DNA of 17,774 nucleotides from Planctomycetota bacterium. GTDB taxonomy: Bacteria; Planctomycetota; Phycisphaerae; WQYP01. The position numbers and the translations under genes were made by a program. Below are positions 116-16,517 of this stretch, piece by piece. Position 1 is the stretch's first letter. Each line of letters begins with the position of its first letter. The stretch lies in assembly GCA_021809365.1 (NCBI GenBank), contig JAKBAC010000060.1, forward strand, positions 1 to 17,774. Reading direction: 5' to 3'. The notes beneath the pieces were generated by a model that was not told the DNA's origin, ran no database searches, and saw only the letters and a list, made by a program, of their open reading frames with translations.

Positions 116-460
116 TTGGCGATATTGGGGAGCACCATCAAACAGGAAATGGGAAGCGGCACAGCCTCAGATATTGAGGAACATTTCTTTCATGATGGCG
201 ACGCGTTTTACAAGGCCAATGTGAAAATCGGCGAACACACCTACAAGCTAAAAGTATTGCCCGATGGCACATTGCTGAAAATGAAGCTCAAGGAAAATGA
301 ACACCGCGACCATGAAGAAGGCGATCATGGTGATGCCGAACATGACTATGGTGAGCATGGGGACCACGATCACGCGGACAGAGACCATGGGGATCATGGC
401 GATCATGGCGAGCATGGCCATGCGGACAAAGATCATGGTGATCGCGGCGACAGCGACTGA
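116..460 (+). CDS. Truncated His/Asp-rich PepSY-like protein (partial paralog of the gene at 1883-2554, possible pseudogene)
   Basis: The 114-residue frame opens with a TTG that has AGGAG 9 bp upstream (102-106). It begins inside what is the second PepSY-like repeat of the paralog at 1883-2554. From position 139 (KQEMGSG) onward the two are closely similar in DNA and protein, through KVLPDGTLLK into a tail rich in DHG, EHG and HADKDHGD units with 13 His. Before 139 the similarity stops. There is no signal peptide and no first PepSY repeat, and an in-frame TAG sits at 101-103. If translated, the product would stay in the cytoplasm, unlike its secreted paralog. It may be a decayed duplicate, or a small metal-binding peptide using a fortuitous TTG. 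I see no PhoB-like box upstream, unlike the full copy. Confidence 0.5.
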   Translation: MAILGSTIKQEMGSGTASDIEEHFFHDGDAFYKANVKIGEHTYKLKVLPDGTLLKMKLKENEHRDHEEGDHGDAEHDYGEHGDHDHADRDHGDHGDHGEHGHADKDHGDRGDSD

Positions 461-505
461 TGCACAAGCCGCATGGCGTTGATGCCATTTCAGGCCAGGC
501 CGATC

Positions 506-600
506 CAGCGTTGCGCTGAACCGGCTTTGCCGGGCATGTCTGCTTTGACGGGGCGGGCATCCTGCTGATTGGCCGGCAGCGCCAATCGGCGTAAGTCGCC
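506..600 (+). other. Cluster of short hairpins in the 3' region after the truncated PepSY gene
   Basis: Four perfect short stems follow one another: CAGCG/CGCTG with a 3-nt loop (506-518), CCGGC/GCCGG with a TTT loop (521-533), GATTGGC/GCCAATC with a 7-nt loop (567-587) and GGCG/CGCC (588-600). A strong terminator follows at 638-669. The region has no convincing protein-coding frame. It could be a structured 3' UTR or a small RNA; no promoter of its own was identified. Confidence 0.35.
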
Positions 601-637
601 GACACACAAAGATGAAGAAGATCCTTCTCCCTTTAAG

Positions 638-669
638 CCCCGGTCAGGTAAAGCTGGCCGGGGTTTTTT
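638..669 (+). terminator. Rho-independent terminator after the truncated PepSY gene
   Basis: A 10-bp stem (CCCCGGTCAG with CTGGCCGGGG, one G-T pair) closes a 6-nt loop and is followed directly by six T residues. It ends transcription coming from the 116-460 gene or from the hairpin-rich region after it. Confidence 0.85.
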
Positions 670-674
670 GTACC

Positions 675-698
675 AGGCATCATCCCTGATGCCGTGGG
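675..698 (+). repeat. 24-bp direct repeat, copy 1 (contains an inverted repeat)
   Basis: This matches 773-796 with one mismatch, 98 bp apart. Copy 1 contains the inverted repeat GGCATCATCCCTGATGCC (7-bp arms, 4-nt centre). It lies just after the terminator at 638-669. Its role is unknown. Confidence 0.7.
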
Positions 699-748
699 CT
701 GGTTTCGGTGCCTGAGATTGCATACGCTCGACGGCACGATGGACCGTG

Positions 749-775
749 CCTGCTACTTACGACAAGAGTAGCAGG
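749..775 (+). other. Stem-loop with 9-bp perfect arms
   Basis: CCTGCTACT (749-757) pairs perfectly with AGTAGCAGG (767-775) around a 9-nt loop. It abuts copy 2 of the 24-bp repeat. No T-run follows directly, so it is not a standard terminator. It could be an RNA structure or a protein-binding site. Confidence 0.5.
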
Positions 776-796
776 AATCATCCCTGATGCCGTGGG
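773..796 (+). repeat. 24-bp direct repeat, copy 2
   Basis: It is identical to 675-698 except for one base, which falls in the left arm of the inner inverted repeat. It overlaps the right arm of the stem-loop at 749-775 and is followed by a short T-rich stretch (797-801). The rest of the gap up to the amidase start at 1086 holds no gene that I can support, only the box and -10 described at 954-986. Confidence 0.7.
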
Positions 797-953
797 TTTT
801 TCTTTCCGACGAATCCAGATTTGGGACAGTACGGAAGATCGCGACTGTTACGGCCCAGGCTCATCCACTCGTGGCGATGCTCGACGTTTTAATACCCATC
901 ATTTCCGGTTCGCAGAAATGGTCGCAGACTCTGCCGGCGCAATCAGGGCGCGG

Positions 954-986
954 TTTCATCTTCCTTTCACGTTTAAGGGCTATTGT
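954..986 (+). promoter_or_regulatory. PhoB-like direct-repeat box A and -10 upstream of the amidase gene
   Basis: TTTCATC-TTCC-TTTCACG (954-971) is two 7-bp half-sites repeating every 11 bp. Nine bases later comes TATTGT (981-986), a plausible -10. Near-identical boxes with the same 9-bp spacing occur at 1798 and 3781. E. coli PhoB boxes have the same layout (7-bp repeats, 4-bp spacer, about 10 bp before -10), so an OmpR/PhoB-family activator is the likely ligand, most simply the regulator at 3877-4551. This implies a transcript start near 993 and a leader of roughly 90 nt for the amidase. Confidence 0.65.
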
Positions 987-1085
987 GATCGGTGGTTCCG
1001 CAAGGCTTCGCCGTCGAATTCTCCGTTCGTCGAGGGTGGCTTGACGGTGCCACTTACATGTTTGGCGTTCGCGAAAGGAGCAATC

Positions 1086-1763
1086 ATGACGTATCCCGAT
1101 GAAAACAGTTCCACTTTCCTGGTGAGGCGTTGGAAAGCCTTGGTTATCCCGGCGATTTTGTGTTTTGTGGTTCTACCCCCTTTTCTGCATGGTGCTGTGG
1201 ATGAGAATAAGAAACCGGCCTTTGTGGTTATTGATCCCGGCCACGGCGGGATTGATTCAGGTACGCGGAGCAGTAACGGCGTGGATGAAAAGACCATCAC
1301 GCTGGCGGTGGCCGGAGATATGGTTCCGCTGCTGAAGCGTGACGATATCAACTTTGTCTTAACGCGCGATCGGGATAAATATGTGAGCCTCAACCAGCGG
1401 GTACAGATCGCCGATCGTCCCGGGGATCGTCTGCTGTTAAGTATTCATTGTGATTATTTCAAACAGCGCGGGATGCGGGGCTTTACCGTGCTTTACGCGC
1501 AGGGTGCCTCCCATGATTCGTGTGTCGCCGCGCACCTGATCGCTGCAGGCCTGATTCATGAGGGCTTTACCTGTCATGATGTCCGCATGGACACACGCGG
1601 GCTGGAGGTGCTGGATAAAAGCAACTGCCCGGCGGTGTTGGTGGAACTGGGGTTTATGTCCGATCCGCATGATTTACGCTATCTCACGTCAAAATCAGGC
1701 CGACAAAAGCTCGCTGCCGGCTTAGCTCGCGGCCTTAAGGCCTATTTGCATGTAACACGATAA
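1086..1763 (+). CDS. N-acetylmuramoyl-L-alanine amidase (Amidase_3 family), membrane-anchored or secreted
   Basis: This 225-residue protein should cleave the amide bond between N-acetylmuramic acid and the stem peptide of peptidoglycan in the periplasm. An N-terminal hydrophobic segment (about 18-36) follows the basic residues RRWK, suggesting an uncleaved anchor or signal peptide. The catalytic domain fills residues 45-222. It has zinc ligands H53 (DPGHGGIDSG), E68 and H121 (LLLSIHCD), and the catalytic glutamate E187 in VELGFMSD. The family often has A or N after SIH, where this has C. The frame is open back to 708, but I chose the ATG at 1086 because AAAGGAG lies 5 bp upstream and the predicted promoter at 954-986 is inside the longer frame. 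No SPOR, LysM or AMIN domain is present. The upstream box links it to the two-component system at 3877-6083. Confidence 0.9.
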   Translation: MTYPDENSSTFLVRRWKALVIPAILCFVVLPPFLHGAVDENKKPAFVVIDPGHGGIDSGTRSSNGVDEKTITLAVAGDMVPLLKRDDINFVLTRDRDKYVSLNQRVQIADRPGDRLLLSIHCDYFKQRGMRGFTVLYAQGASHDSCVAAHLIAAGLIHEGFTCHDVRMDTRGLEVLDKSNCPAVLVELGFMSDPHDLRYLTSKSGRQKLAAGLARGLKAYLHVTR

Positions 1764-1797
1764 AGCATCGCGCGGCAAAATATCGGTGCAATCAGCG

Positions 1798-1830
1798 TTT
1801 CACGTTCCTTTCATGGAGGGATGTTACGTT
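1798..1830 (+). promoter_or_regulatory. PhoB-like direct-repeat box B upstream of the His-rich PepSY-like gene
   Basis: TTTCACG-TTCC-TTTCATG (1798-1815) has the same half-sites, 11-bp period and TTCC spacer as boxes A and C. The -10-like hexamer 9 bp downstream, TACGTT (1825-1830), is weak, but its position matches the other two exactly. The start codon follows at 1883, giving a leader of about 45 nt. Confidence 0.6.
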
Positions 1831-1882
1831 AAGTCGATGCAGATTGAATTGTTCGATCTGCGATTTTCTCAGGAGTGCGGTT

Positions 1883-2554
1883 ATGAATCGCAAAGCATGT
1901 CTTATTATCGGGGTTGTTGGATTGGCTTTAGCAGCCAGAGGCACGCTGCCCGTGCGGGCCGATGCGCCGGACCATGGGGAATCCAAGGTGACCATGGCGC
2001 AATTGCCGACTGCTGTGGCTAAGACGCTTACGCAGGAGGCCGCGGGCGGGCAAGTTGGGGAGATTGATATGGCCGTCGGCGATCACCGAGTCACATACGA
2101 AGCCGATGTGGTTATCAGCAAAATGCCCTATGAAATTAAAATATCCACGGATGGCACGCTGCTGAAAAAGCACCTAAGCGATATGGATCTTACGATGGCT
2201 GAACTCCCCGCTGCCGTTGCGGCAACAGTCAAACAGGAAATGGGCAGCGGCAAGGCCTCCGATATCGAGGAAGATTACACTGATGCTGGAAGCGCTTATT
2301 ACAAAGCGACCGTGAAGATCGGCGAACACGCGTATAAGCTCAAAGTGCTGCCCGACGGCACGTTGCTGAAAATCAAACTCAAGAAAGAAGATCACGGCGA
2401 CCATGAAGATGGCGATCATGCGGATCACGATGACCATGGAGACCATGGGGACCATGGCCATGCGGATAAAGATCATGGAGATCATGGGGACCATGGCCAC
2501 GGCGATGGTGATCATGGGGATCATCACCATGGCGATCATGGCGACAACCACTGA
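1883..2554 (+). CDS. Secreted two-domain PepSY-like protein with His/Asp-rich metal-binding tail
   Basis: The 223-residue product has a typical signal peptide (about 1-28, MNRK then a hydrophobic run ending near VRADA). Two PepSY-like (PF11396-type) repeats follow: about 38-98 (MAQLPTAVAKTL to DGTLLKKHL) and about 105-167 (MAELPAAVAATVKQ to DGTLLKIKL). The tail (169-223) is built of DHG-type triplets with 18 His and many Asp, ending GDHHHGDHGDNH. Such tails commonly bind Zn, Ni, Cu or Co; which metal is unknown. I chose the ATG at 1883 over the in-frame ATG at 1844 because AGGAG (1871-1875) lies 7 bp before it and it starts the signal peptide exactly. It is probably a periplasmic metal buffer or sensor accessory for the kinase and pump downstream, which is an inference from the shared box and the His-rich sensor of the kinase. 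A truncated copy lies at 116-460. Confidence 0.8.
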   Translation: MNRKACLIIGVVGLALAARGTLPVRADAPDHGESKVTMAQLPTAVAKTLTQEAAGGQVGEIDMAVGDHRVTYEADVVISKMPYEIKISTDGTLLKKHLSDMDLTMAELPAAVAATVKQEMGSGKASDIEEDYTDAGSAYYKATVKIGEHAYKLKVLPDGTLLKIKLKKEDHGDHEDGDHADHDDHGDHGDHGHADKDHGDHGDHGHGDGDHGDHHHGDHGDNH

Positions 2555-2584
2555 CCGCCGGACATAAAAGCATCCTCCTCCCTG

Positions 2585-2628
2585 AGCAGGGCTGGCCCGT
2601 GGCGCTATGGGCTGGCCCTGCTTTTTTT
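2585..2628 (+). terminator. Rho-independent terminator after the His-rich PepSY-like gene
   Basis: AGCAGGGC and GCCCTGCT form the outer stem. A 2x2 internal mismatch (TG/TG) separates it from an inner GCCC/GGGC stem with a 10-nt loop. Seven T residues follow. It lies 30 bp after the stop codon. The remaining sequence up to the reverse-strand gene end at 2757 shows no feature I can support. Confidence 0.85.
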
Positions 2629-2756
2629 ACCCCTTTGCCCTCCGTCAATTCTAATTTGCAAGCTTGCGGTGGGCGAGCCTCTCCTCGCCGAGCAGGGATC
2701 GCCCGTGGTGCCAGGAAGCAGAGGTATACAAGCGGCTTGGATACCGCCTATGGCGA

Positions 2757-3632
2757 TCAGCCTTCGGCCTCGCCGGATGGCACGTCCCGATCGTCCACGG
2801 CAACCGGCTGAAGTGCCGGGGACGGGCTAACATCGATTCGGGTTTTGGAAAGATAGGCAACCAATCCAAAAATGGTCACGAGAAAAATGGCACTCGTGCC
2901 GACGGTTCCAAGACCCAGGCCGCCCAAGTCATGTGGTTGCGACATGAGATCTCCAATAGATGCGCCCAGCGGTCGCGTCAAGACATAGGCGGCCCAGAAC
3001 GCAAAAACCGAATTGAGTTTAAACTGGTAGTAGCCGATGGTGATTATTGCAATGCCCGTTGCAAAAATAAGCGCGGAGTTGAGATAGCCCCATTTCAGGC
3101 CTTCGGCCAACAGATCTCCACCCGATGTCCCCAGCGCAAACGTGAAGAGAATTGTAAGCCAGTAGAACGCTTCGCGTCGGGTGGTGAAGATGGTGTGAAT
3201 GGAAAGCGTCTTCTCGCTGGCGTACCAGGAAACGAACGCCACAAGCAGCAGGAACGAAAACCCGATGGTAGTGACACTTAAAGGAACGTGCATATTATCG
3301 GCGAGATTATCGCTGATCAGCGTTCCCACCACGCTGATGAGCACCACCGCAAACCAATACAGCTTAGGCACGTACCTCCTGGCGCGAAACTGGAAGTAGA
3401 GCGCCACCACCAGCAAACCGCTCATGAAAAGGCTGGTATAGGTCAGGCCAAAGCCCAGCTTGAGGTTCAGAAGATCCGCAGCGGTCTCCCCTACCGTGGT
3501 GGCCATAATCTTGATAATCCAAAAATACAGCGTAATTTCCGGCACTTTGTTCAACATCGTAGCGCCACGATCCTGCTGCAACAGAGTGTCCGACTGCGTA
3601 TCGCGAGTTCCCCGGTTTGCGTAGTTTGGCAT
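2757..3632 (-). CDS. COG4705-type multi-pass membrane protein of unknown function
   Basis: The 291-residue protein has a polar N-terminus (1-30), about eight hydrophobic segments between roughly 31 and 261, and a polar C-tail. It resembles the uncharacterised COG4705 membrane proteins, recognised from KVPEITLYFWIIKI and TTVGETAADLL. Four intramembrane acidic motifs recur at about 50-60 residue intervals: GETAAD (48-53), SDNLAD (107-112), GGDLLAE (171-177) and GASIGD (223-228). This implies an internally repeated transporter-like fold. The ATG at 3632 has AGGAGG 5 bp upstream; the longer frame to 3707 has no such site. It is divergent from the regulator gene at 3877, with a possible degenerate PhoB-like box in its leader. 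A role in envelope or metal stress is inferred from context only. Confidence 0.75.
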   Translation of the reverse strand: MPNYANRGTRDTQSDTLLQQDRGATMLNKVPEITLYFWIIKIMATTVGETAADLLNLKLGFGLTYTSLFMSGLLVVALYFQFRARRYVPKLYWFAVVLISVVGTLISDNLADNMHVPLSVTTIGFSFLLLVAFVSWYASEKTLSIHTIFTTRREAFYWLTILFTFALGTSGGDLLAEGLKWGYLNSALIFATGIAIITIGYYQFKLNSVFAFWAAYVLTRPLGASIGDLMSQPHDLGGLGLGTVGTSAIFLVTIFGLVAYLSKTRIDVSPSPALQPVAVDDRDVPSGEAEG

Positions 3633-3705
3633 AAGAGCCTCCTGTAAATAAATCGCCCCGCGACGCCCCGGAACATCCGGTGATTTTCGCCACAGACCAA
3701 CAGCC

Positions 3706-3738
3706 ACCCTAGCAACTGAACATGAAGGGCTGATTAAA
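3706..3738 (-). promoter_or_regulatory. Degenerate PhoB-like box D facing the COG4705 gene
   Basis: Read on the reverse strand, TTTAATC-AGCC-CTTCATG (3738 to 3721) matches the 18-bp consensus at 14 positions. It is followed after the same 9-bp gap by TAGGGT (3711 to 3706), a poor -10. The geometry matches the other three boxes, but half-site conservation is lower, so this is tentative. Confidence 0.35.
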
Positions 3739-3780
3739 GCGATATTCTTTTTGCGCCTGGCCGGATCGTGATCACGGGCT

Positions 3781-3813
3781 TTTCATCTTCCTTTCATCAA
3801 CTTCCTTTATACT
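3781..3813 (+). promoter_or_regulatory. PhoB-like direct-repeat box C and -10 of the two-component/RND operon
   Basis: TTTCATC-TTCC-TTTCATC (3781-3798) is a perfect 7-bp direct repeat with an 11-bp period. Nine bases later is TATACT (3808-3813), a good -10. There is no -35 match, as expected for an activator-dependent promoter. It sits 64 bp before the regulator start at 3877, suggesting autoregulation. Confidence 0.7.
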
Positions 3814-3876
3814 TAGGTGCTTGGTAGCAGTTGCCTTTTGCCTGCTTCCAAATGATGGGTGTTGGCAGGTGCGTTC

Positions 3877-4551
3877 ATGCGGGTACTGGTGGTTGAGGAT
3901 TTTAAGACGCTAAGGGAATCCATCGCGCAAGCTCTGCGCGAACAGACCTACGTGGTCGATGAAGCCGGCGATGGGCGGCTGGCGCTATGGCATCTGCAAA
4001 GCGGTCATATTGATGTGGTAATTCTGGATTTAATGATGCCGGGAATCGATGGCTTTCAGGTACTCAAGGCCATGGAACGCATGAAAGTCCGACCAGCGGT
4101 CCTGGTTCTGACAGCGCGCGATACCGTGGATGACCGGGTCAAAGGATTGGATGCGGGAGCCGATGATTATCTCACCAAGCCCTTTGCCCTGGAGGAAATG
4201 CTGGCCAGAGTCCGAGCCTTAACGCGACGGCGATATAAAGTGGCATCATCGAAACTGACCATCGGAACCCTGGCCATAGACCTCAACGCCCGGCGGGCTT
4301 TCCGGGCCGGGGTGGAAATTGAATTAAGCGCCCGGGAATATGCCATACTGGAGTATCTGGCCATGCGGCAGGGAGAAATTGTCTCACGGGCCGAAATTTG
4401 GGAACATGTGCATTGCGACGATTCGCCGCCGGAAAGCAATGTCGTGGACGTATTTGTAAGCTTGCTGCGCAAGAAAATTGACGCGGATTCGCCGGATCGA
4501 CTGATTCACACGCGGCGCGGCCAGGGCTATATGCTTGGGGCAGGTGTTTGA
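3877..4551 (+). CDS. OmpR/PhoB-family response regulator (heavy-metal CusR/CopR-like)
   Basis: The 224-residue protein is a receiver domain (1-115) joined to a winged-helix DNA-binding domain (about 128-222). Receiver residues are intact: acidic pair E7/D8, phosphoacceptor D51 in VVILDLMMPGIDG, T79 and K101 (LTKPF). The C-terminal domain has the OmpR-type LSAREYAILEYL and VDVFVSLLRKKI helices and the HTRRGQGYML wing. I prefer the ATG at 3877 (weak AGG 7 bp upstream) to the in-frame GTG at 3859, because MRVLVVED is the usual start of the family. The next gene begins in a TGATG overlap, so regulator and kinase are translationally coupled. The most likely targets are the four boxes described here, including its own promoter. 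Confidence 0.92.
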   Translation: MRVLVVEDFKTLRESIAQALREQTYVVDEAGDGRLALWHLQSGHIDVVILDLMMPGIDGFQVLKAMERMKVRPAVLVLTARDTVDDRVKGLDAGADDYLTKPFALEEMLARVRALTRRRYKVASSKLTIGTLAIDLNARRAFRAGVEIELSAREYAILEYLAMRQGEIVSRAEIWEHVHCDDSPPESNVVDVFVSLLRKKIDADSPDRLIHTRRGQGYMLGAGV

Positions 4552-6083
4552 TGGGATCCATCCGACTACGGTTGACGCTCTGGTGCGGAGTGGCCATTGC
4601 GCTGATGCTGGCGGTGTTGGGCGTAAGTTTGTATCTGACGCTGCAACATTCATTGCAATCGCAGTTTAACGCCTCGCTTGTCGCTCGAGCCACCCTGCTG
4701 GTGGATACGCTGGACTGGGACCAGCATCGCGGATTCCATGTCAGCACCGATTTTACTCCCATCGCCGGTGGCGAAAATCAGGGTACGCCGCATTATTTTC
4801 AGATATGGACACCGGAAGGAAAATCGGTTCTCAGGGCACCGGCGCTCGGCAGGCGTCAATTGAAATTTATCAAGCCGCCGCCGGACGCCGACGTGTTTGC
4901 AGCGGTCAATCTTGCCGGTGACCACGGTGGCCGCGAACTGGTGCTCCGCTTTCGCGAAGGTGACGACGATGATTCCGAGCACCATCATGATGCCCGGAAC
5001 GGACACGGACATGTGGATACCCATGGCGAAACGACCTTGCCGCAACAAGGTGATCATCTTGATTATCATGATGCGCCGGGGAAGCATGCGCCGCGTCATT
5101 ACATTCTCGCCGTGGCGCGACCCACAGAGGAGTTGGATGAAGCAATTTCGAGCATCGGCTGGTCGCTGGCGATTTCCTGCACGCTGACCACGCTGGTTTC
5201 CGCGGTTTTGATAGCATGGCTTTTACACCACGGTTTTCGTCCGGTCAATGCCATTGCGGAACAGATCGCCGCCGTCGGTGCCACACATCTGGACGATCGC
5301 ATCAGCCCGGAAAACATTCCGCGCGAACTATTACCCATTGTGGATCGTCTCAATAAGTTGCTGGAGCGTGTGGAAGTGGCGGTGAAGCGCGAAAAATCGC
5401 TTACGGCCGATATGGCTCATGAGCTGCGCACACCCTTGGCGGGTTTGCGCACGGCTATGGAACTGTCTTTATCCCGCGCGCGAGCGCCGGAGGAATATCA
5501 GCATACGCTCCGGCAATCGCTGGCGATCAGTATGCAAATGCAGGATATGGTGGAAAATCTTCTCATGCTGGCGCGGCTGGAGTCGGGATTGTCGGCAAAG
5601 AATTTGGAATCCTGTCGATTGGACCAGATGCTCGCCCGGCAATTGGAGCAGTTTTCCGATGGCATTCTGGACCGCAACGTGATGTTGGAAAACAGCGTAA
5701 TGATGCCGACGCTGGTGTTAGCTCCGCCGGAATTGCTGACACTGGTGATTCGCAATGTGCTGGACAACGCGGTAAGTTACGTCAATGATAAAGGGACGAT
5801 CCGGGTGACGTTGTCTGAAGCGGCTCATGAGATGGAATTGCGCGTTGCCAATACCGGCAGTGCGGTCTCATCGGCGCAGTCCCAACAGGTATTTGAACGG
5901 TTCTGGCGCGGGGATGCGTCGCGCACGGGGCAGGGGCGGCACAGCGGGCTGGGATTATCCATCGTGCAAAATGCAATGCGGCAAATCGGTGGCACGGCTA
6001 CGGTTGAATCTTCCCTCGGTGGATGGTTTACTATGATATTGCTATTTCCAAAGCATGGAAGCGATGGAGCGCATGAAGTTTAA
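4551..6083 (+). CDS. Sensor histidine kinase (CusS-like) with a His-rich periplasmic sensor domain
   Basis: The 510-residue inner-membrane kinase has TM1 (about 8-31), a periplasmic domain (about 32-202), TM2 (about 203-225), HAMP (about 226-280), a dimerisation domain with phospho-accepting H290 (DMAHELRTPLAG) and an ATPase domain. The ATPase domain has N402/N406 in the N box, NTG (434-436) in place of the usual DxG, as in CusS-like kinases, the F box (VFERFWRGD) and SGLGLS (465-470). The periplasmic domain contains a low-complexity stretch at 136-183 with DDDD followed by HHH (144-146) and seven further His. This could bind the inducing metal directly and echoes the His-rich tail of the protein at 1883-2554. 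The ATG at 4551 overlaps the regulator stop (TGATG). Confidence 0.92.
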   Translation: MGSIRLRLTLWCGVAIALMLAVLGVSLYLTLQHSLQSQFNASLVARATLLVDTLDWDQHRGFHVSTDFTPIAGGENQGTPHYFQIWTPEGKSVLRAPALGRRQLKFIKPPPDADVFAAVNLAGDHGGRELVLRFREGDDDDSEHHHDARNGHGHVDTHGETTLPQQGDHLDYHDAPGKHAPRHYILAVARPTEELDEAISSIGWSLAISCTLTTLVSAVLIAWLLHHGFRPVNAIAEQIAAVGATHLDDRISPENIPRELLPIVDRLNKLLERVEVAVKREKSLTADMAHELRTPLAGLRTAMELSLSRARAPEEYQHTLRQSLAISMQMQDMVENLLMLARLESGLSAKNLESCRLDQMLARQLEQFSDGILDRNVMLENSVMMPTLVLAPPELLTLVIRNVLDNAVSYVNDKGTIRVTLSEAAHEMELRVANTGSAVSSAQSQQVFERFWRGDASRTGQGRHSGLGLSIVQNAMRQIGGTATVESSLGGWFTMILLFPKHGSDGAHEV

Positions 6084-7497
6084 CGGCAAACACAAAAAAC
6101 AATTCGGAATTACCGCGGTGTTATGTACTCTGACGCTGGCGGGATGCCAGAGCTATCAATCCAAACCGCTGACGGAGGCGGTGGTTAAAAAAGCGCTTGC
6201 GGTGCCGGGGTGGAAGCAATTGCGAATTTCCGCCACGCGGATTCGTGGTATTGGATTGCCAACTCTGCCCCTGCACCCGAATGGTGGATTAACGCCGGAT
6301 GAGGCCGCGGTGATTGCGGTGATATTGAATCCATCACTGCGAATCGCACGTGATCAACGCGGAGAGGCGGTGGCGCAGGTCATTGAAGCCGGGATATTGC
6401 CGAACCCCCAGTTGTCTGATTCGACGGCCCTTGTCACGGGCGGATATCGCACCGATACGTTCACGGGATATGGCGTGGGCCTGAACTGGGATGTCACGCG
6501 GCTGATCGACCGTGATGCGCGGTTGGCCTCGGCCAAGTATCACCGTGGTCAGGTGGATTTGGAGGTGGCCTGGCAGGAGTGGCAAACCGCGCAGGCGGCG
6601 CGGCTGGCCGTTTATAATCTGGCGGCCACGGAGGCGCAATTGCATCAGGCTCAGTTGGCGGAGGGCGAACTGCAAAGCAATCAGCAAGTGGTGCAGAAAG
6701 CATATAACGCCAGTCTCAATACCATTCTGGATCTGACCGCCGCCCGTGCCGCCAGCCAGCAGGCTCAAGCCCTGGTGCAATTGCTGATGCAAAAGCGCAA
6801 CCAAAATATGATTCGGCTGCGGCAGATCATGGGATTGCCGATCAACGCGCCCGTTCGATTGAGCCGAGAAGTGAAGTTTCCAGCCGGCATTACGTTACCG
6901 CCGGAGAGTGTCATCCTTAAAGACCTGCCTCGGATGCGGCTGGATCTCGTGGCCCTGAAGCTTGGTTACGAAAGTCAGGAAGAAGCCTTGCGGGCGGCGG
7001 TGTTGCGGCAATTTCCGCGCGTGAGCCTGGGCTTCCAGCAAGCCAGCGACACCACAAATGTGCATACAACAGGATTCGGTGTCAGCATTGACCTACCCAT
7101 TTTTGATCGCAATCAGGGGAACATTGCAATTCAAAAGGCAACCCGCAAACTGCTTTATGACACCTACATTGCCCGCGAATTTGATGCCCGATCAGCGGTG
7201 GCCATGGCCTATTCCGATATTCATGCGCTGGTCTCACAAATTGCCGCCACCGACGCGGCGGTAAAGAGTCTGGCAAAACTCGTGCGGACATATCGGCAGG
7301 CGCTGCAATTCGGGAACGTCGATATTGTCAGCTATTACACGGAAGTGGACCAGTTGATCCAGAAGCGGATTAACCTGATTCAGCTCAAGAATCAGCTTGA
7401 ACGCAACCGCATCGCTCTGGCCCTGGCCGCCGGGACTTACGTGCCGGAAATGAGCACATCCCGGAAACCCATGCGACAAGGAGATACAAAGCCATGA
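6073..7497 (+). CDS. Outer-membrane efflux lipoprotein (TolC/CzcC-type OMF)
   Basis: This 474-residue protein is probably the outer-membrane channel of the tripartite pump. The N-terminus is a lipoprotein signal: basic MKFNGKHKK, a hydrophobic run, and lipobox LAGC with the acylated Cys at residue 25. Two long alpha-helical OEP repeats follow, rich in Gln, Ala and Leu; the first begins near DEAAVIAVILNPSLRIA. Candidate in-frame starts are 6055, 6064 and 6073. None has an ideal ribosome site, and I chose 6073 because it begins the signal peptide and has a GGAG nearby. Any of them overlaps the kinase end (6083), so translation is coupled. The stop overlaps the adaptor start (ATGA). Confidence 0.88.
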   Translation: MKFNGKHKKQFGITAVLCTLTLAGCQSYQSKPLTEAVVKKALAVPGWKQLRISATRIRGIGLPTLPLHPNGGLTPDEAAVIAVILNPSLRIARDQRGEAVAQVIEAGILPNPQLSDSTALVTGGYRTDTFTGYGVGLNWDVTRLIDRDARLASAKYHRGQVDLEVAWQEWQTAQAARLAVYNLAATEAQLHQAQLAEGELQSNQQVVQKAYNASLNTILDLTAARAASQQAQALVQLLMQKRNQNMIRLRQIMGLPINAPVRLSREVKFPAGITLPPESVILKDLPRMRLDLVALKLGYESQEEALRAAVLRQFPRVSLGFQQASDTTNVHTTGFGVSIDLPIFDRNQGNIAIQKATRKLLYDTYIAREFDARSAVAMAYSDIHALVSQIAATDAAVKSLAKLVRTYRQALQFGNVDIVSYYTEVDQLIQKRINLIQLKNQLERNRIALALAAGTYVPEMSTSRKPMRQGDTKP

Positions 7498-8591
7498 AAC
7501 CTTCGACAATCCTGCTATCGGGTGTACTGATAACCGTCGCGGCGGCGGGAATCGGAGCGGTGGCGTGGCGAGAGCATCCGTCATCCGCGGCGGTGAATGC
7601 TGTTGCGGTTTTGCCCCGCGCCAGTCAAAATGTCATAGCGTTTGTAAAAACGGTGCCGATACGCCGGCAGAGCATCTCCGAGTCGGTCGTCTCCTATGGC
7701 ACCGTGGTGGCACGGGCCAGTTCCATTCGCAATGTGGCGGTTCCCTTCAAATCGCAGGTGCTGCGTATACTTGTCGCCGGTGGACAGCATGTAGAGGCAA
7801 AAGAACCGCTGCTGCAGCTTGAGTCCACGAATTCCGAACTTCTCCTGTTGGCGCAGGCACAAAATGCGGCCCTGACCGCACGGGAACAACTATCCGAAGA
7901 GAAGCAGAAATTCGCATTGCATCTGGCCACACGCCAAAGTTTGCTGGCCGCACAGCAGGCCCTGCAACTGACGCAGTTGAACTTATCCAATCTTAAAGCG
8001 CTTGGCATCGGCGGGCCGCGCTTAATAAAGGCTCCGGCTAGTGGTGTGGTGGCCAAAATACTTTCCGGGCCGGGGCAGATTATTCTTCCCGGCGGCCCTC
8101 TTTTACAACTGGTATCTTCACGCAATATTGAAGTGCAGTTGGGCCTGGAACCGGAGGATTCCATCAAAGTGCGGCGCGGACAAACCGTCGCGCTTGTGCC
8201 GGTTGGAGAACAGAAAACCCGGGCGATAGTCGGACATATTTCCCTGATTACCCAGCGCGTTAACCCGCGCACGCGGCTGGTGGATGTTTTTGTCACACCC
8301 GAGGCGCACTCTGGATTGTTGTTGGGGCAGTATGTGGAAGGCAAATTAATCATCGCGCATGCCACGGGATTGGTGGTCCCACGCGCGGCGGTACTGCCCG
8401 TGGGCACCAATGAGGAGCTGTTTACGGTTCAGCATGGCCGTGCGGTGGTACATTACGTGCATATCGGACTGTCCAATGCGCAATACCTGCAACTGCTCAA
8501 CAGCACACTGACTCAGGGCGAACAGGCGGTCATCGTGGGCAACGCGGAATTAACCGATGGAATGGCCGTGACAAGGACGTTTAAGCCATGA
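7494..8591 (+). CDS. RND efflux periplasmic adaptor subunit (HlyD/MFP family)
   Basis: The 365-residue membrane-fusion protein links the RND permease to the outer-membrane channel. It has an N-terminal hydrophobic anchor or signal (about 5-25) and a split barrel-sandwich/lipoyl domain (VPFKSQVLRILVAGGQHVEAKEPLLQLES, then IKAPASGVVAKILSGPGQIILPGG). These flank a short helical hairpin. The beta-barrel and membrane-proximal domains lie towards the C-terminus. No His- or Met-rich metal-chaperone extension is present, unlike several CzcB/CusB proteins. Start and stop overlap the neighbours by 4 bp (ATGA on both sides), and AAGGAG lies 10 bp before the ATG. Confidence 0.9.
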   Translation: MKPSTILLSGVLITVAAAGIGAVAWREHPSSAAVNAVAVLPRASQNVIAFVKTVPIRRQSISESVVSYGTVVARASSIRNVAVPFKSQVLRILVAGGQHVEAKEPLLQLESTNSELLLLAQAQNAALTAREQLSEEKQKFALHLATRQSLLAAQQALQLTQLNLSNLKALGIGGPRLIKAPASGVVAKILSGPGQIILPGGPLLQLVSSRNIEVQLGLEPEDSIKVRRGQTVALVPVGEQKTRAIVGHISLITQRVNPRTRLVDVFVTPEAHSGLLLGQYVEGKLIIAHATGLVVPRAAVLPVGTNEELFTVQHGRAVVHYVHIGLSNAQYLQLLNSTLTQGEQAVIVGNAELTDGMAVTRTFKP

Positions 8592-11500
8592 ATTTTAATC
8601 AATGGATTCACAAGCATACCCGCTCGGTGTTGTTTGTCATGCTGGTACTGGCACTGGGCGGGGCACTGGCGGCTCTGGGCCTGCCGGTGGCCCTGTTTCC
8701 GCGGGTCAGTTTTCCGCGCATTGAAGTATCGGTAAATTCCGGCCAGCAGCCCGCGCAACGCATGAACATCTCGGTAACGTATCCTGTGGAACAGGTTGTG
8801 CGTTCCATCCCGGGCGTGCAATCCGTTGAAGCCCGCACGGGCCGCGGCTCATGCGAACTAAAAATCAGTTTCGCATGGGGATCCAACATGTCCCAGTCGC
8901 TGCTGGAAGTGGACTCACAAATCAACAGTATACTCACCAAACTTCCGCCCGGAACAAGTTTTCGCGCCAAACGCATGGACACCACCAACTTTCCAGTGCT
9001 GGGCTACAGCCTGGTTTCATCCACATTATCTCCCAGCCGCCTGCGCACCATTGCCAAGTATCAGATCCAACCGCTGCTGTCCACCGTCCGCGGCGTGGCG
9101 CGCGTGCAGGTGCAGGGCGGGGCGACGCCGGAATATCATGTCATCGTCAATCCGGCCCGTCTTCAGGCATTCAATATGACACTAAGCGATGTGGCACAGA
9201 GTTTAAGCGCCGCCAATGTGTTAAGTGCGGTGGGAAAATTTGAAGATCACGACAAATTGTATCTGATTATTTCCAACACCAGTTATCGCAGTATCCGGCA
9301 GATTCAACAGGTGGTTCTGCGCACCGGGGCCAATGGTCTTGTGCGGCTCGGCGACGTCGCCACTGTGAAGCTCTCCACCAAACCGCAGTGGATCCGCGTG
9401 GACGCCGACGGCCATCCCGCCGTGTTATTGCAGGTATTTCAGCAGCCGGGCGGGAATACCGTCCGTATTGCCCGCGATATACGCAGGAAAATGAAGGACT
9501 ATAAAAAAAACCTTCCACCGGGCATTAACATTGCGACGTGGTACAACCAGAGTCAGCTTATTCTGGCGGCCGCCGCATCGGTGCGGGATGCGGTGGTCAT
9601 TGGCATTATTCTGGCCATAGCCGTGTTGCTGCTGTTTCTGCGCAACTGGAAAATTACCCTGATCGCCGCGATGGTGGTGCCCGCCGTACTGAGTTCCACG
9701 ATTCTGCTTCTGTATTTATTCCACATGAGCTTCAACATCATGACCCTGGGTGGCATGGCGGCAGCAGTGGGATTGATTATTGATGACGCCATTGTGATGG
9801 TGGAACATATTGTCCGGCGCATCCGCGGTTCCACCGACGACCCGCGCGCCCGGATTATCAAATCCACGCGCGAGTTTACCGGGCCGTTGGCCGGATCTTC
9901 CACTTCCACCATGATTATCTTCGCGCCGCTGGCATTTCTTTCCGGCGTTACCGGGGCTTTTTTCAAGGCCTTGTCATTGACCATGGCGGCAAGCCTGATG
10001 ATTTCGTTTTTTATGGCCTGGCTGGCTGTTCCCGTCTTGGCGGCGCATTGGCTTAATCAACGTGATGCCGATCAGCCGGAAGGCGGCCGAATTACCGCTT
10101 ATCTCCATCGGGTCTATGCGTGGATCATGGTCCGCATTCTCCGTGTGCCGGCGCTGGTATTGGTGGTTCTGGTGCCGATTCTGGTGCTGGGTTACCTGGC
10201 GTATGAGAATGTCGGCAGCGGCTTTATGCCGCACATGGATGAAGGCGGGTTTATTCTGAATTATGTGGCAAATCCCGGCACATCACCCACGGAAACCAAT
10301 CGGCTGCTCCTGGAAGTTGAAAAAATTATCTTAGCCAACAGGTATGTTGATACATTTTCCCGCCGCACGGGACTGCAGCTTGGCGGAGGTACCACCCGAT
10401 CTTACACCGGGGATTTCTTCATTCGCCTCAAGGGTTTTCCGCGACCACCCATCGAGAAGATCATGACTGCCATCCGCCAACGTATTCGCCAGCGGGTGCC
10501 GGGGTTAAAAATTGACACCGCACAGATGATGCAGGACCTCATCGGTGATCTTACGGCGGTGCCGCAGCCTATCGAAATTAAAATTTTCTCGGACAGCGGC
10601 CCGTTACTCAATGCCCAGGCGTTAAAGGTAAAATATGCCATATCCCGTATCCCCGGGGTGGTGGAAGTGCGCAGCGGAATTCAGATTGCCGGTGATGCCC
10701 TGCAAATTCGCGTTAATCGGATCAAGGCGGCGCTGCAGGGGATGACCGCCGATACCATCACCCGATCCCTGAGAGCGTATCTTTCCGGTACGGTCACCAC
10801 CCGCATTCAGCGCGGGCCGCAGATGATTGGCGTGCGTGTCTGGGTGCCGCGGGTGGACCGGGCCACCGAGCATGACATTCGTAATTTACTTCTGCGCGCG
10901 CCGGATGGTCATTTGTTCCCGCTCAAAGAGGTCGCTTCGATTCAAACGCTTAACCGGCAGCAGGAAATATTCAGTGACAACCTGAAACGCATGATCGCCG
11001 TGACCGCCCGCATCAACGGACGCGATATGGGGTCCACCGTCGCCGCAGTGCAACGGATACTCAATAAGCCCGGCATGTTTCCACAGGGCATGTATTATGA
11101 ACTTGGCGGCCTGTACAAACAGCAGCAGATCGCGTTTCGCGGCCTTTTGGTGGTCATGATCGCGGCGATTTTACTGGTATTTCTGGTGCTGCTGTTTCTG
11201 TATGAGCACTTCCGCGTGGCTCTGGCCATGCTGTCAATCCCACTTTTGGCCCTGTGCTGCGTGTTTGTGGGACTTTGGGTGACGCATACGGAACTCAATG
11301 TCTCATCCATGATGGGCATGACGATGGTGGTGGGCATTGTCACGGAGGTTGCGATTTTTTATTATTCGGAATATCAAGAAATAGGCGATCGGACGCCGCC
11401 AATTCAACGCTTGATTGACGCCGGCAAAAACCGCATGCGTCCCATTGCCATGACCACCGTTGCCGCCATTTTAGCATTGTTGCCCCTGGCCTTGGGCATT

Positions 11501-11641
11501 GGGCAGGGATCGCAAATGCAACAACCGCTGGCCATAGCGATTATTACAGGTTTATGTGTGCAATTGCCCCTGACGCTGGTCATTCTGCCGACATTGCTGA
11601 AAATTGTGCGTCAAGAAAAAGTCGGCCAGTCAGTGGTATGA
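8588..11641 (+). CDS. RND-family efflux permease (HAE1-like TM4 signature, atypical TM10)
   Basis: The 1017-residue inner-membrane pump drives export with proton influx. The usual RND plan is visible: TM1 (about 13-33), first periplasmic loop, TM2-6 (about 335-485), central linker, TM7 (about 518-540), second loop beginning VGSGFMPHMDEGG, and TM8-12 (about 853-1005). TM4 carries GLIIDDAIVMVE with an Asp pair, D399/D400. That fits hydrophobe/amphiphile pumps better than metal pumps, which have D-G there. In TM10 the position normally held by the essential Lys of HAE1 pumps (GLxxKNAI) reads GIVTEVAIFY, with E920. So the substrate should not be assumed to be a metal, despite the His-rich sensor. 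It is the last gene of the operon. Confidence 0.9.
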   Translation: MNFNQWIHKHTRSVLFVMLVLALGGALAALGLPVALFPRVSFPRIEVSVNSGQQPAQRMNISVTYPVEQVVRSIPGVQSVEARTGRGSCELKISFAWGSNMSQSLLEVDSQINSILTKLPPGTSFRAKRMDTTNFPVLGYSLVSSTLSPSRLRTIAKYQIQPLLSTVRGVARVQVQGGATPEYHVIVNPARLQAFNMTLSDVAQSLSAANVLSAVGKFEDHDKLYLIISNTSYRSIRQIQQVVLRTGANGLVRLGDVATVKLSTKPQWIRVDADGHPAVLLQVFQQPGGNTVRIARDIRRKMKDYKKNLPPGINIATWYNQSQLILAAAASVRDAVVIGIILAIAVLLLFLRNWKITLIAAMVVPAVLSSTILLLYLFHMSFNIMTLGGMAAAVGLIIDDAIVMVEHIVRRIRGSTDDPRARIIKSTREFTGPLAGSSTSTMIIFAPLAFLSGVTGAFFKALSLTMAASLMISFFMAWLAVPVLAAHWLNQRDADQPEGGRITAYLHRVYAWIMVRILRVPALVLVVLVPILVLGYLAYENVGSGFMPHMDEGGFILNYVANPGTSPTETNRLLLEVEKIILANRYVDTFSRRTGLQLGGGTTRSYTGDFFIRLKGFPRPPIEKIMTAIRQRIRQRVPGLKIDTAQMMQDLIGDLTAVPQPIEIKIFSDSGPLLNAQALKVKYAISRIPGVVEVRSGIQIAGDALQIRVNRIKAALQGMTADTITRSLRAYLSGTVTTRIQRGPQMIGVRVWVPRVDRATEHDIRNLLLRAPDGHLFPLKEVASIQTLNRQQEIFSDNLKRMIAVTARINGRDMGSTVAAVQRILNKPGMFPQGMYYELGGLYKQQQIAFRGLLVVMIAAILLVFLVLLFLYEHFRVALAMLSIPLLALCCVFVGLWVTHTELNVSSMMGMTMVVGIVTEVAIFYYSEYQEIGDRTPPIQRLIDAGKNRMRPIAMTTVAAILALLPLALGIGQGSQMQQPLAIAIITGLCVQLPLTLVILPTLLKIVRQEKVGQSVV

Positions 11642-11687: not shown

Positions 11688-12281
11688 TCACGATTCTTGT
11701 ACTGGTTTTGTTTCTAAAGCGCGGACAATCCGACGGTCCGGGATCAACCACATCGCGGCCACGAACAGGTAAAGCGCATCCGAGAGCCAATGGTTAACGA
11801 ACGCAAGGCCGATGGCCGCGACGTAGCAGACCATGGATAATTTTCCCTTGCGATCGCGCCCGATCGCGCCGGCCAGAAATGAGTCATGGCCCTGCATGTG
11901 AATGATGGCGAATTGCAAAATGAAGTACGCAACCGCCGCCATCAATAAAACAACCCCGTATAATGCCGTCGGCAGGGCTGCGGAATAGTTTTGTCCCACC
12001 CAGCGCGTTACAAACGGCACCAGCGAAAGCCAGAATAAAAGATGCAGATTGGCCCACATGATTCCTCCATTGATCGCGCGGGTCGCATGGATCATGTGAT
12101 GGTGGTTATTCCAGTAGATACCAATATAAATAAAGCTTAACACATAACTGAAAAGCACCGGCAGCACCGGTAAAAGCGCCGCGACATTCGTCCCCGGCGG
12201 CTCCTTGAGATCCAACACCATAATGGTGATGATGATGGCAATTACGCCATCACTGAACGCTTCAAGTCTACTGGTTCGCAT
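11688..12281 (-). CDS. TMEM175-family potassium channel (DUF1211)
   Basis: The 197-residue protein has six hydrophobic segments and begins with the family signature RLEAFSDGVIAIIITIMVLDLK. FSD (residues 9-11) in TM1 is the hallmark that lines the tetrameric potassium pore in bacterial TMEM175. The second helix end, YWNNHHHMIHA, also fits. GAGG lies 5 bp before the ATG at 12281. It is convergent with the RND operon, 46 bp from its end, with no clear terminator between, and lies downstream of the pirin gene on the same strand. A link to either neighbour is unproven. Confidence 0.85.
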   Translation of the reverse strand: MRTSRLEAFSDGVIAIIITIMVLDLKEPPGTNVAALLPVLPVLFSYVLSFIYIGIYWNNHHHMIHATRAINGGIMWANLHLLFWLSLVPFVTRWVGQNYSAALPTALYGVVLLMAAVAYFILQFAIIHMQGHDSFLAGAIGRDRKGKLSMVCYVAAIGLAFVNHWLSDALYLFVAAMWLIPDRRIVRALETKPVQES

Positions 12282-12356
12282 AAGCCCTCAATCCAATGCA
12301 ATATCTTCGGACGCCTATTCCAACCATGCCGTCCAGCCTGAAGCCATCACGGTAAG

Positions 12357-13244
12357 CTAATTTCCGGCATTTAACTCTCCCATCCGCCCGTTTCGATATT
12401 CCTCAAATGCCTTTGCGATCTCCTCCTGGGAATTCATGACAAATGGGCCGCGACCCACGATGGGTTCATCTATCGGCGCACCGCTCATAACCAGCAGGTG
12501 TGAATTCGTATTGGTTTTCAGCGTGATACTCTCGCCGGATCGATCGAAGATAACCAGATCGCTCTCGCCCGCTTTTTTGCCTTCCACCTCAACTTCACCC
12601 TCCAACACAAGAATGACGGTTGTATGTCCATCGGGCAAGGGCAGTGTTACCGCCTCCTTCTGGTGGAGATTTACATCCCACAAATTGATGGGGGTAAAAG
12701 TTTTTGCGGCACCTTTTTGCCCCGCGTATTCACCGGCGATAATCCGTGCGACCTCAGCCCCATGAGCCAAGGCCACATTGGGAATCGCGGCTTTGAGCAA
12801 AGACTGATACCCCGGCGTGGCGGTCTTATCCTTCGCGCGCAGATTCACCCAGAGCTGAACCACCTGGAATGGTCCGCCGCGGCGTGTGAATTCCGTTGAA
12901 TGAAATTCCTCATGGATAATTCCCCGTCCCGCGGTCATCCATTGCACGTCACCCGGCCCAATTTTTCCCCCGCCGCCATGCGAATCGCGGTGCTCAAGTT
13001 CGCCTTGATAAACGAGGGTGACTGTTTCAAAGCCTTTGTGCGGATGGCCTCCCACACCGCGCTGTTCATCGCCGGGCGGGAATTCATAGGGGGCGGCATA
13101 GTCCAGCAGCAAAAATGGACTTAATTCACGCCCCAGACCATTGTAATCGAACACCGAATTCACCGGGAAGCCATTGCCAACCCAGTGCATATCCGAACTC
13201 TGGTGAATCCGCAGCAGCTTTTTCATATACAATTCTTTCGTCAT
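12357..13244 (-). CDS. Pirin-family bicupin protein
   Basis: The 295-residue protein has two cupin halves. The N-terminal one carries the pirin metal site: H67 and H69 (GGHPHKGFETVTLVYQGE), H111 and E113 (AGRGIIHEEFHS). Pirins bind Fe and include quercetin dioxygenases and redox-sensitive regulators; the role here cannot be decided from sequence. The start is uncertain. The ATG at 13244 follows the glycosyltransferase stop by 7 bp, suggesting coupling, while the in-frame ATG at 13226 (MKKLLRI) begins nearer the conserved region. Neither has a good ribosome site. It probably shares a transcript with the gene ending at 13252. Confidence 0.88.
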   Translation of the reverse strand: MTKELYMKKLLRIHQSSDMHWVGNGFPVNSVFDYNGLGRELSPFLLLDYAAPYEFPPGDEQRGVGGHPHKGFETVTLVYQGELEHRDSHGGGGKIGPGDVQWMTAGRGIIHEEFHSTEFTRRGGPFQVVQLWVNLRAKDKTATPGYQSLLKAAIPNVALAHGAEVARIIAGEYAGQKGAAKTFTPINLWDVNLHQKEAVTLPLPDGHTTVILVLEGEVEVEGKKAGESDLVIFDRSGESITLKTNTNSHLLVMSGAPIDEPIVGRGPFVMNSQEEIAKAFEEYRNGRMGELNAGN

Positions 13245-13251
13245 AAAGGTG

Positions 13252-14394: not shown

Positions 14395-14546
14395 GACGTC
14401 ATACTCTCAGTGGCAGCCCGCGTACGACCAACGCACCCCGGAACGTTCCAGTAAACGCACCGTAAGCGCCATTTTAATGTTAGGCTCCGTCACATTTGAA
14501 GGCAAATGGCCCATGCAACCCCATCCGATGGCGCAAGCGCGGCGCG

Positions 14547-14576
14547 TTTCCCCATGTTTCTGTTTATCGCTATAAT
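14547..14576 (+). promoter_or_regulatory. Probable promoter of the methyltransferase/ubiX operon
   Basis: A perfect TATAAT (14571-14576) is preceded at 18 bp by TTTCCC (14547-14552), a weak -35. Transcription would begin near 14583, about 29 nt before the ATG at 14612. The rest of the 14395-14611 gap shows no gene. Confidence 0.5.
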
Positions 14577-14611
14577 GATCATGTTGAATTGTGCAATGGA
14601 TTGATACGCAA

Positions 14612-15385: not shown

Positions 15386-15740
15386 ACTCGCGGAACCCGA
15401 ACAGATCATGCGCCGAACGGTGCGGTGCGATTGGATCTGCCGCCATTGCGGGCAGCAGTTCGGTTCAGAAAATATCGCCTATTATTGCGCCACACTGCCG
15501 GATATCATTAAACCGACCTGGTTTTTCGCCGCCATGACCCTGCTGGATCATCTGCGCGATTGCCGGAATGAAGATTATACGGGGAGGCTGGCCGGGCGTT
15601 ACGGATCGGATTTTTTATCGCATCCTCAAATTTATAACTGGTTTAATGAGCACGCGCTGGTGGAAAAACGCCTCATTGAGGAAGAAGAACTTGACGATCA
15701 GCAGGGCCGACGTGCTGGTACTTTTACAGGAGAACGCTGA
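15378..15740 (+). CDS. Small uncharacterised Cys/His protein between the methyltransferase and ubiX
   Basis: I do not recognise this 120-residue protein. It has C17, C21 and C24 (WICRHCG), C37, and H58-x3-C62 (DHLRDC). C21/C24 with H58/C62 would make a C2HC-type zinc site. The C-terminus is acidic and charged (EKRLIEEEELDDQQGRR). It has no signal peptide or membrane segment. It overlaps the methyltransferase by 8 bp and ubiX by 1 bp (TGATG), so all three are translationally coupled. This suggests a role in the same pathway, perhaps regulatory or scaffold, which is inference only. Confidence 0.7.
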   Translation: MRKLAEPEQIMRRTVRCDWICRHCGQQFGSENIAYYCATLPDIIKPTWFFAAMTLLDHLRDCRNEDYTGRLAGRYGSDFLSHPQIYNWFNEHALVEKRLIEEEELDDQQGRRAGTFTGER

Positions 15741-16336: not shown

Positions 16337-16344
16337 CAGTGCGA

Positions 16345-16370
16345 CGGATCGGGTTTATAAACCGGGTCCG
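16345..16370. other. Imperfect 26-bp palindrome between convergent genes
   Basis: A perfect 12-bp palindrome, GGTTTATAAACC (16352-16363), lies at the centre of a 26-bp imperfect palindrome with CGGATC on the left and GGGTCCG on the right. It is 9 bp after the ubiX stop and 148 bp from the Sel1 gene end. It could be a bidirectional transcription end or a dimer-binding site. No T-run follows, so a standard terminator is not supported. The rest of 16371-16517 shows no gene. Confidence 0.4.
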
Positions 16371-16517
16371 ATTCGCTCCCTGCGAAGACCGACGGCACCA
16401 CATGACCATGACGGCGCTCCGGGGACCTAACGCGACTGAGCACCGTGGCGATCATCCCTAATGATGACATGCTCCCTGTTCGCCCGGCGCTTAACGTTGC
16501 GTGCCGGCGGTGTGTCG

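What the first reader, a model, noticed from the sequence alone, without database searches (positions are those of the whole stretch)
954..3813. A shared 18-bp PhoB-like box marks a probable stress regulon
Three intergenic copies of TTTCAYSTTCCTTTCAYS (954-971, 1798-1815, 3781-3798) precede a cell-wall amidase, a secreted His-rich PepSY-like protein and the regulator/kinase/RND operon. Each has 7-bp half-sites with an 11-bp period, the same TTCC spacer, and a -10-like hexamer exactly 9 bp downstream. OmpR/PhoB-family activators are known to bind such head-to-tail sites next to -10, and a regulator of that family is encoded here. This defines a testable autoregulated regulon joining metal buffering, efflux and wall remodelling.
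Basis: partly seen in the sequence, partly recalled or inferred. Interest (0 to 1): 0.8.

Follow-up and report, generated by a model that had tools for sequence, protein, structure and literature searches.

The report
Shared PhoB-like switch at four promoters
A repeated 18-letter DNA switch, built like the well-known PhoB binding site, sits in front of a cell-wall enzyme, a histidine-rich secreted protein, a membrane protein and a sensor/efflux operon, so these genes are probably switched on together; the kind of control is ordinary, the gene set is what is worth testing.

Summary
Three 18-bp boxes (954-971, 1798-1815, 3781-3798) are head-to-tail 7-bp repeats with a 4-bp spacer, in three promoters with unlike flanks. 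A matrix from 59 published E. coli PhoB sites ranks them 2nd, 3rd and 4th of 35,514 window positions. TANNNT follows each at exactly 9 bp and at no other gap from 0 to 35.

None has a good -35 at 15-19 bp, as expected if the box replaces it.

Best explanation: the OmpR/PhoB-family regulator encoded at 3877 binds the boxes as a tandem dimer and activates four units: amidase, His-rich PepSY-like protein, DUF347 protein, and its own regulator-kinase-efflux operon. Coinciding contig lengths suggest that amidase, PepSY and kinase genes stay linked in planctomycete relatives.

Binding, signal and conservation of the boxes could not be tested: no genome was held for the window and I reached no DNA of close relatives. 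The metal theme is only partly supported. New member of a known kind; moderate interest.

The parts
954..971 (+). Box 1, TTTCATC-TTCC-TTTCACG, 9 bp, then TATTGT (981-986); before the amidase gene
   Evidence: PhoB-matrix rank 4 of 35,514
1086..1763 (+). N-acetylmuramoyl-L-alanine amidase (Amidase_3), start 99 bases after the -10 hexamer, AAAGGAG before the ATG
   Evidence: PF01520, 147.1 bits; distances
1798..1815 (+). Box 2, TTTCACG-TTCC-TTTCATG, 9 bp, then TACGTT (1825-1830); before the PepSY-like gene
   Evidence: PhoB-matrix rank 2 of 35,514
1883..2554 (+). Secreted-looking protein with two PepSY-like domains and a His/Asp/Gly-rich tail
   Evidence: PF11396 E 0.0015, 19.2 bits, below its cut-off of 28.3; structure model and fold matches
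2757..3632 (-). DUF347 membrane protein, divergent from the regulator gene
   Evidence: PF03988, 204.1 bits, 4 stretches
3706..3738 (-). Box 4 (3738-3721), TTTAATC-AGCC-CTTCATG, 9 bp, then TAGGGT (3711-3706); faces the DUF347 gene
   Evidence: 14.4 bits against 9.9 for the next position; 93 of 3000 shuffles reach the score, 0 of 3000 with TANNNT at 9 bp; 4th of 240 positions with TANNNT at gap 9, 5th scores 0.88
3781..3798 (+). Box 3, TTTCATC-TTCC-TTTCATC, 9 bp, then TATACT (3808-3813); before the regulator operon
   Evidence: PhoB-matrix rank 3 of 35,514
3877..4551 (+). OmpR/PhoB-family response regulator, the proposed reader of the boxes
   Evidence: PF00072 and PF00486; solved relatives PrrA, BasR/PmrA, PhoP
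4551..6083 (+). Sensor histidine kinase with a His-rich periplasmic loop
   Evidence: PF00512, PF02518; alignment of 19 homologues; best NCBIfam match below its cut-off
6055..7497 (+). Outer-membrane efflux protein, overlapping the kinase gene
   Evidence: PF02321
7494..8591 (+). Membrane-fusion protein of the pump
   Evidence: PF13437, PF16576; TIGR01730 over its cut-off
8588..11641 (+). RND permease
   Evidence: PF00873, 697.5 bits; each NCBIfam RND model listed is below its cut-off

Best explanation
The boxes are operators of the OmpR/PhoB-family response regulator encoded at 3877-4551. Its partner kinase (4551-6083) senses an envelope or metal-type stress and phosphorylates it; the regulator binds each box head-to-tail as a tandem dimer in the place of a -35 element and recruits RNA polymerase to the -10 hexamer 9 bp downstream. 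Four units are switched on: the amidase, the His-rich PepSY-like protein, the DUF347 protein (weaker box) and, by autoregulation, the regulator-kinase-efflux operon. Shown here: the boxes, their repeat geometry, register with PhoB sites, the fixed -10 spacing, gene content and inferred linkage in relatives. Inferred: that this regulator and no other binds, that it activates rather than represses, and the nature of the signal.
For: Three near-identical direct-repeat boxes in three promoters. Register and sequence fit the PhoB matrix: ranks 2-4 of 35,514, 0 of 500 column-permuted matrices reach the sum. TANNNT only at gap 9 in all four downstream stretches. No good -35 at 15-19 bp: 0-3 of 6 letters of TTGACA; the sigma-70 scan of 461-3900 found one site, not at a box. 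Box 3 lies before the gene of an OmpR/PhoB-family regulator whose genes overlap or abut through the pump. Recognition helix like PrrA and PhoP, which belong to the family that reads direct repeats (PMC4832192 passages). Kinase-amidase, kinase-PepSY and amidase-PepSY homologues share contig lengths and sources.
Against: No binding or expression data. The regulator-box pairing rests on position; another OmpR-family paralogue could read the boxes. The boxes could not be checked in any close relative. Two of the four -10 hexamers match TATAAT at only 3 of 6 letters. Box 4 alone, by score, is reached in 93 of 3000 shuffles and has another spacer. In E. coli the strict TANNNT at gap 9 occurs in only 2 of 11 PhoB sites examined. 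The 4-mismatch family test was not significant.
Confidence: 0.72

Rival explanations
1. The boxes are true Pho boxes read by the organism's own PhoB, or by another OmpR-family paralogue encoded elsewhere; the neighbouring regulator is a target, not the reader.
For: The E. coli PhoB matrix places the boxes among the top four of the window with 12.7-12.9 bits, inside the range of real E. coli sites (7.3-25.0, median 16.2). In E. coli the cusR/cusC region itself holds a PhoB site (PMC10294691 Table 1).
Against: I recognised no phosphate gene among the window genes given to Pfam. The box stands at the promoter of a two-component operon, where autoregulation is common (recalled). Both half-sites have T where the E. 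coli consensus has G (TTTCA against TGTCA).
Confidence: 0.18
2. The conserved stretch is not an activator site but a promoter element of an alternative (ECF-type) sigma factor, with the box as a long -35 region.
For: Fixed distance to a -10-like hexamer in all four; no good sigma-70 -35.
Against: A perfect or near-perfect 11-bp-period direct repeat and its fit to PhoB sites are not expected of a -35 element; I recognised no sigma-factor gene among the window genes scanned.
Confidence: 0.05
3. Chance likeness, or remains of a duplicated promoter, with no regulatory role.
For: 2 of 400 shuffles give a family as tight, 8 of 60 at the looser setting; boxes 1 and 2 share GCAATCAG upstream, at different distances, and the PepSY gene is partly duplicated at 116-460.
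Against: Flanks of the three boxes match at only 3-8 of 20 letters in the blocks compared; the boxes are intergenic, correctly oriented and share the -10 spacing.
Confidence: 0.05

Closest known systems
Pho box of E. coli PhoB (PMC10294691, section with Table 1 read; PMC4971064, passages)
   Same: 18-bp direct repeat with 11-bp period, TCA core in each half-site; box near -10 in place of -35; phoA (TATAGT) and phoB (CATAAT) have a -10-like hexamer at the same 9-bp gap
   Different: TTTCA instead of TGTCA half-sites, fixed TTCC spacer in three boxes; gene set is envelope/efflux, not phosphate; only 2 of 11 E. coli sites have strict TANNNT at gap 9, one of them on the strand opposite to its gene
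PhoP of M. tuberculosis on 7-bp repeats (PMC4832192, abstract and passages)
   Same: 7-bp motifs with a 4-bp spacer, tandem dimer; recognition helix residues N and V at PhoP positions 212 and 213 are shared
   Different: Motif TCACAGC; other base-contacting positions differ (E215 to D, S216 to V, Y217 to F, Y220 to L, read)
CzcRS/CusRS/CopRS heavy-metal two-component systems with RND pump
   Same: Best NCBIfam matches of regulator (212.8 bits) and kinase (237.9 bits); pump genes in the same operon
   Different: Both below the curated cut-offs (279.2 and 292.55); permease below the CusA/CzcA cut-off (453 against 701); recognition helix unlike PcoR, whose VRRLR is VSLLR here
PepSY protein beside a two-component pair: DbfQRS of Vibrio cholerae (PMC12714742, passages) and UipA-UipRS of Microbacterium (PMC8963506, passages; the UipA paper was not held)
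   Same: PepSY-type periplasmic protein encoded close to a regulator/kinase pair; UipA is a tandem of PepSY domains that binds metal
   Different: Here His-rich tail, sub-threshold PepSY domains, and added DUF347, amidase and RND genes
UzcRS regulon of Caulobacter (PMC8963506, passages)
   Same: Zn/Cu/U-responsive two-component system with 18-bp sites and many envelope targets, efflux pumps among them
   Different: UzcR half-sites are CATTAC-N6-TTAA, another sequence

Membership tests
OmpR/PhoB-family direct-repeat operator | Two head-to-tail half-sites with an 11-bp period | tested here: met
   register by PhoB matrix
OmpR/PhoB-family direct-repeat operator | Position replacing -35, close to -10 | tested here: met
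   9 bp to TANNNT in 4 of 4; 0-3 of 6 letters of TTGACA at 15-19 bp
OmpR/PhoB-family direct-repeat operator | Bound by a response regulator of that family | not testable with these tools
   needs binding assay; a family member is encoded behind box 3
Pho regulon | Sites score as PhoB sites | tested here: met
   ranks 2-4 of 35,514
Pho regulon | Phosphate genes among the targets | tested here: inconclusive
   none recognised among the window genes scanned, but the genome is not held
CzcR/CusR/CopR heavy-metal regulators | TIGR01387 over its cut-off | tested here: not met
   212.8 against 279.2 bits
CzcS/CusS/CopS heavy-metal kinases | TIGR01386 over its cut-off | tested here: not met
   237.9 against 292.55 bits
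CusA/CzcA heavy-metal RND pump | TIGR00914 over its cut-off | tested here: not met
   453 against 701.45 bits; the best model, RND_permease_2, is also below its cut-off (538 against 1250)
PepSY-TCS module (DbfQRS-like) | PepSY protein encoded within four genes of kinase or regulator | tested here: met
   one gene (DUF347) lies between PepSY-like gene and regulator; domain call rests on PF11396 below cut-off and fold matches
PepSY-TCS module (DbfQRS-like) | PepSY protein acts on the sensor domain of the kinase | not tested
   no complex was predicted here

The most novel reading that the evidence does not exclude
A planctomycete envelope regulon in which one regulator co-controls a peptidoglycan amidase, a His-rich periplasmic metal buffer, a DUF347 transporter and an RND pump, and the PepSY-like protein, itself induced from a box, feeds back on the kinase: a wall-remodelling response wired to metal or envelope stress.
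Probability: 0.25. Interest if true: 0.55.

Novelty: new member of a known kind. Interest (0 to 1): 0.4.

Why it matters
It gives an exact operator sequence and a four-promoter target list for a two-component system in what looks like a planctomycete lineage (the few named homologues are Phycisphaerae or Planctomycetia). It also places a wall amidase and a DUF347 protein under one proposed switch, which makes their roles testable together.

Tried and rejected
Own-genome scan: not possible, no genome held. Relatives in GTDB contigs with the kinase as query: three distant loci, in Novosphingobium rosa and two cyanobacterial MAG records; a scan of the 10 loci held at that point found no TTTCAYS-N4-TTTCAYS. 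Viral contigs with the kinase alignment: two distant loci; with the regulator and with the PepSY protein: none. Plasmids: the 5000 best kinase records (capped) are all under 60% identity. Sequence strings of the box in papers: six strings, 0 papers, open-licence PMC library only. Rfam at gathering thresholds: 0 matches. Bare pattern in viral contigs: 19 stretches, against 11 for the reversed pattern; with the -10 slot 0; no tblastn match of the six proteins tried (amidase, PepSY, DUF347, regulator, kinase, permease) in those 19 at 1e-4. UipA is known here only through passages of PMC8963506; it is not among the structure matches listed, which says nothing against kinship. A possible third half-site before box 3 (GATCACG, 3770-3776, 2 mismatches) was not pursued.

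Considered and set aside: a metal-specific pump (cut-off not met); the set as a phosphate regulon (see rivals); PMC9426598 and PMC12864828, of which I read passages only, added nothing used here.

The contig-length comparison was redone on the full lists.
Full report
OBSERVATION. Because that pattern was taken from the data, I also asked, without a pattern, how often intergenic DNA of this composition yields three 18-mers within 3 mismatches of a seed: 2 of 400 shuffles. At 4 mismatches the test does not discriminate (8 of 60). Flanks of the three boxes match at 3-8 of 20 letters in the blocks compared, so the boxes are not part of a longer duplicated stretch.

PROMOTER GEOMETRY. Downstream of each box a TANNNT hexamer begins after exactly 9 bp. 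Over gaps 0-35 no other TANNNT occurs in any of the three, nor after the fourth box, while its background rate is 0.0073 per position. Letters matching TATAAT are 4, 3, 5 and, for the fourth, 3 of 6 (by eye). Hexamers 15-19 bp upstream match TTGACA at 0-2 of 6 letters for the three boxes and 0-3 for the fourth. The sigma-70 scan of 461-3900 found one promoter-like site, at 3271, not at a box (shuffles average 2.6). This is the layout of an activator that replaces the -35; PMC4971064 (passages) says so of the usual E. coli Pho box.

A FOURTH BOX. A matrix from the three boxes gives one further stand-out: minus strand 3738-3721, TTTAATCAGCCCTTCATG, 14.4 bits, next best 9.9. By score alone 93 of 3000 shuffles do as well; with TANNNT at 9 bp, 0 of 3000. 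Of 240 window positions with TANNNT at gap 9, the three boxes and this one lead, and the fifth scores 0.88. It faces the DUF347 gene, whose ATG at 3632 follows AGGAGG. The intergenic region thus carries two divergent boxes.

PHOB-LIKE IN A TESTABLE SENSE. I built a matrix from the 59 PhoB sites of PMC10294691 (section with Table 1 read) and scored the window: boxes 2, 3 and 1 rank 2nd, 3rd and 4th of 35,514; rank 1 is at 12612, inside the pirin gene; the fourth box ranks 20th at 8.0 bits. Shifts of 1-6 bp turn the scores negative, and 0 of 500 column-permuted matrices reach the sum. In E. coli K-12, phoA has TATAGT and phoB CATAAT at the same 9-bp gap. Of the 11 sites examined, strict TANNNT at gap 9 occurs at 2: phoA, and phoE, whose listed site is on the strand opposite to its gene; pstS has TATAAC, ugpB TACAAA and yoaI TAACAA there. 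So the spacing is shared with some Pho promoters, not all. M. tuberculosis PhoP binds 7-bp motifs with a strict 4-bp spacer as a tandem dimer (PMC4832192, abstract and passages).

THE REGULATOR. The gene behind box 3 encodes a receiver plus winged-helix protein. Its best solved relatives are 1kgs (response regulator D), PrrA, BasR/PmrA and PhoP. NCBIfam's best match is the heavy-metal regulator subfamily, below its cut-off. In the recognition helix it resembles PrrA and PhoP rather than PcoR: VRRLR in PcoR is VSLLR here. That it reads the boxes is inference from position, family and form of the site.

RELATIVES. The few named close homologues are Phycisphaerae or Planctomycetia; most have no name. 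No DNA of close relatives was reachable, but the longest-contig lengths printed for homologues coincide. Over 119 kinase, 120 amidase (119 with a length) and 20 PepSY rows: kinase-amidase at 8 lengths, of which 6 (5542, 26230, 37556, 42739, 91042, 193526) involve the closest rows and share a source, and 2 (5184, 1651) involve distant rows from different sources and look like chance; kinase-PepSY at 3 lengths (17399, 21662, 91042); amidase-PepSY at 3 (84773, 88613, 91042). In the first, smaller comparison 0 of 95 amidases outside the clade coincided with the 25 closest kinases or the 20 PepSY rows. Equal lengths from the same source are taken to mean the same contig. Long contigs do not prove adjacency; the 5,542-base one puts kinase and amidase within that span. 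So the amidase is probably a lasting neighbour of the kinase, which favours a common regulon.

BACKGROUND. The exact box occurs in 0 of 398 Pseudomonadota and 0 of 386 cyanobacterial genomes, as does the reversed control. By my estimate about one match is expected in that much DNA, so this shows that the pattern is rare, not that it is lineage-specific. In viral contigs it occurs in 19 stretches against 11 for the reversed pattern, and never with TANNNT in the slot.

MECHANISM AND RANKING. Signal to kinase, phosphorylation of the regulator, cooperative tandem binding, recruitment of polymerase at four promoters, with positive autoregulation. Chief rival: the same box read by the organism's own PhoB or another paralogue. 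PepSY proteins beside two-component pairs are a recurrent module, and DbfQ of Vibrio cholerae is reported to interact with the sensory domain of its kinase (PMC12714742, passages); feedback of that kind is the boldest reading left open. UzcR of Caulobacter is a functional parallel (metal-responsive, envelope targets) with a different site sequence (PMC8963506, passages).

VERDICT. A real and well-formed regulatory element of a known kind. In the listings of my paper searches (titles and starts of abstracts, open-licence PMC only) I saw no paper on this gene combination; that is weak evidence of absence.

Noticed in passing
window 116-460: A second, 5'-truncated copy of the His-rich PepSY-like protein; likeness to the full copy starts only at the KQEMGSG stretch. 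Relatives P0138 and P0139 are similar C-terminal parts joined to other N-termini.
   Followed up: partly
window 1838-1862: An 11-pair hairpin followed by a T-rich stretch lies at the predicted 5' end of the PepSY mRNA, just after the expected start near 1837.
   Followed up: no
window 4950-5105: The kinase's periplasmic loop is rich in His and Asp and varies in length and sequence among relatives; possibly a metal-sensing stretch.
   Followed up: no
window 8588-11641: The permease carries GLIIDDAIVMVE in its fourth helix region, which by recall is the drug-pump rather than the metal-pump form of this motif.
   Followed up: no
window 11688-17753: Downstream genes: TMEM175-type channel (11688-12281, -), pirin (12357-13244, -), GT9 glycosyltransferase (13252-14394, -), UbiE-type methyltransferase (14591-15385, +), flavoprotein (15740-16336, +) and a protein with 11 Sel1 repeats (16518-17753, -).
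   Followed up: no
window 939-946 and 1788-1795: GCAATCAG occurs upstream of boxes 1 and 2 but at different distances from them; meaning unknown.
   Followed up: no
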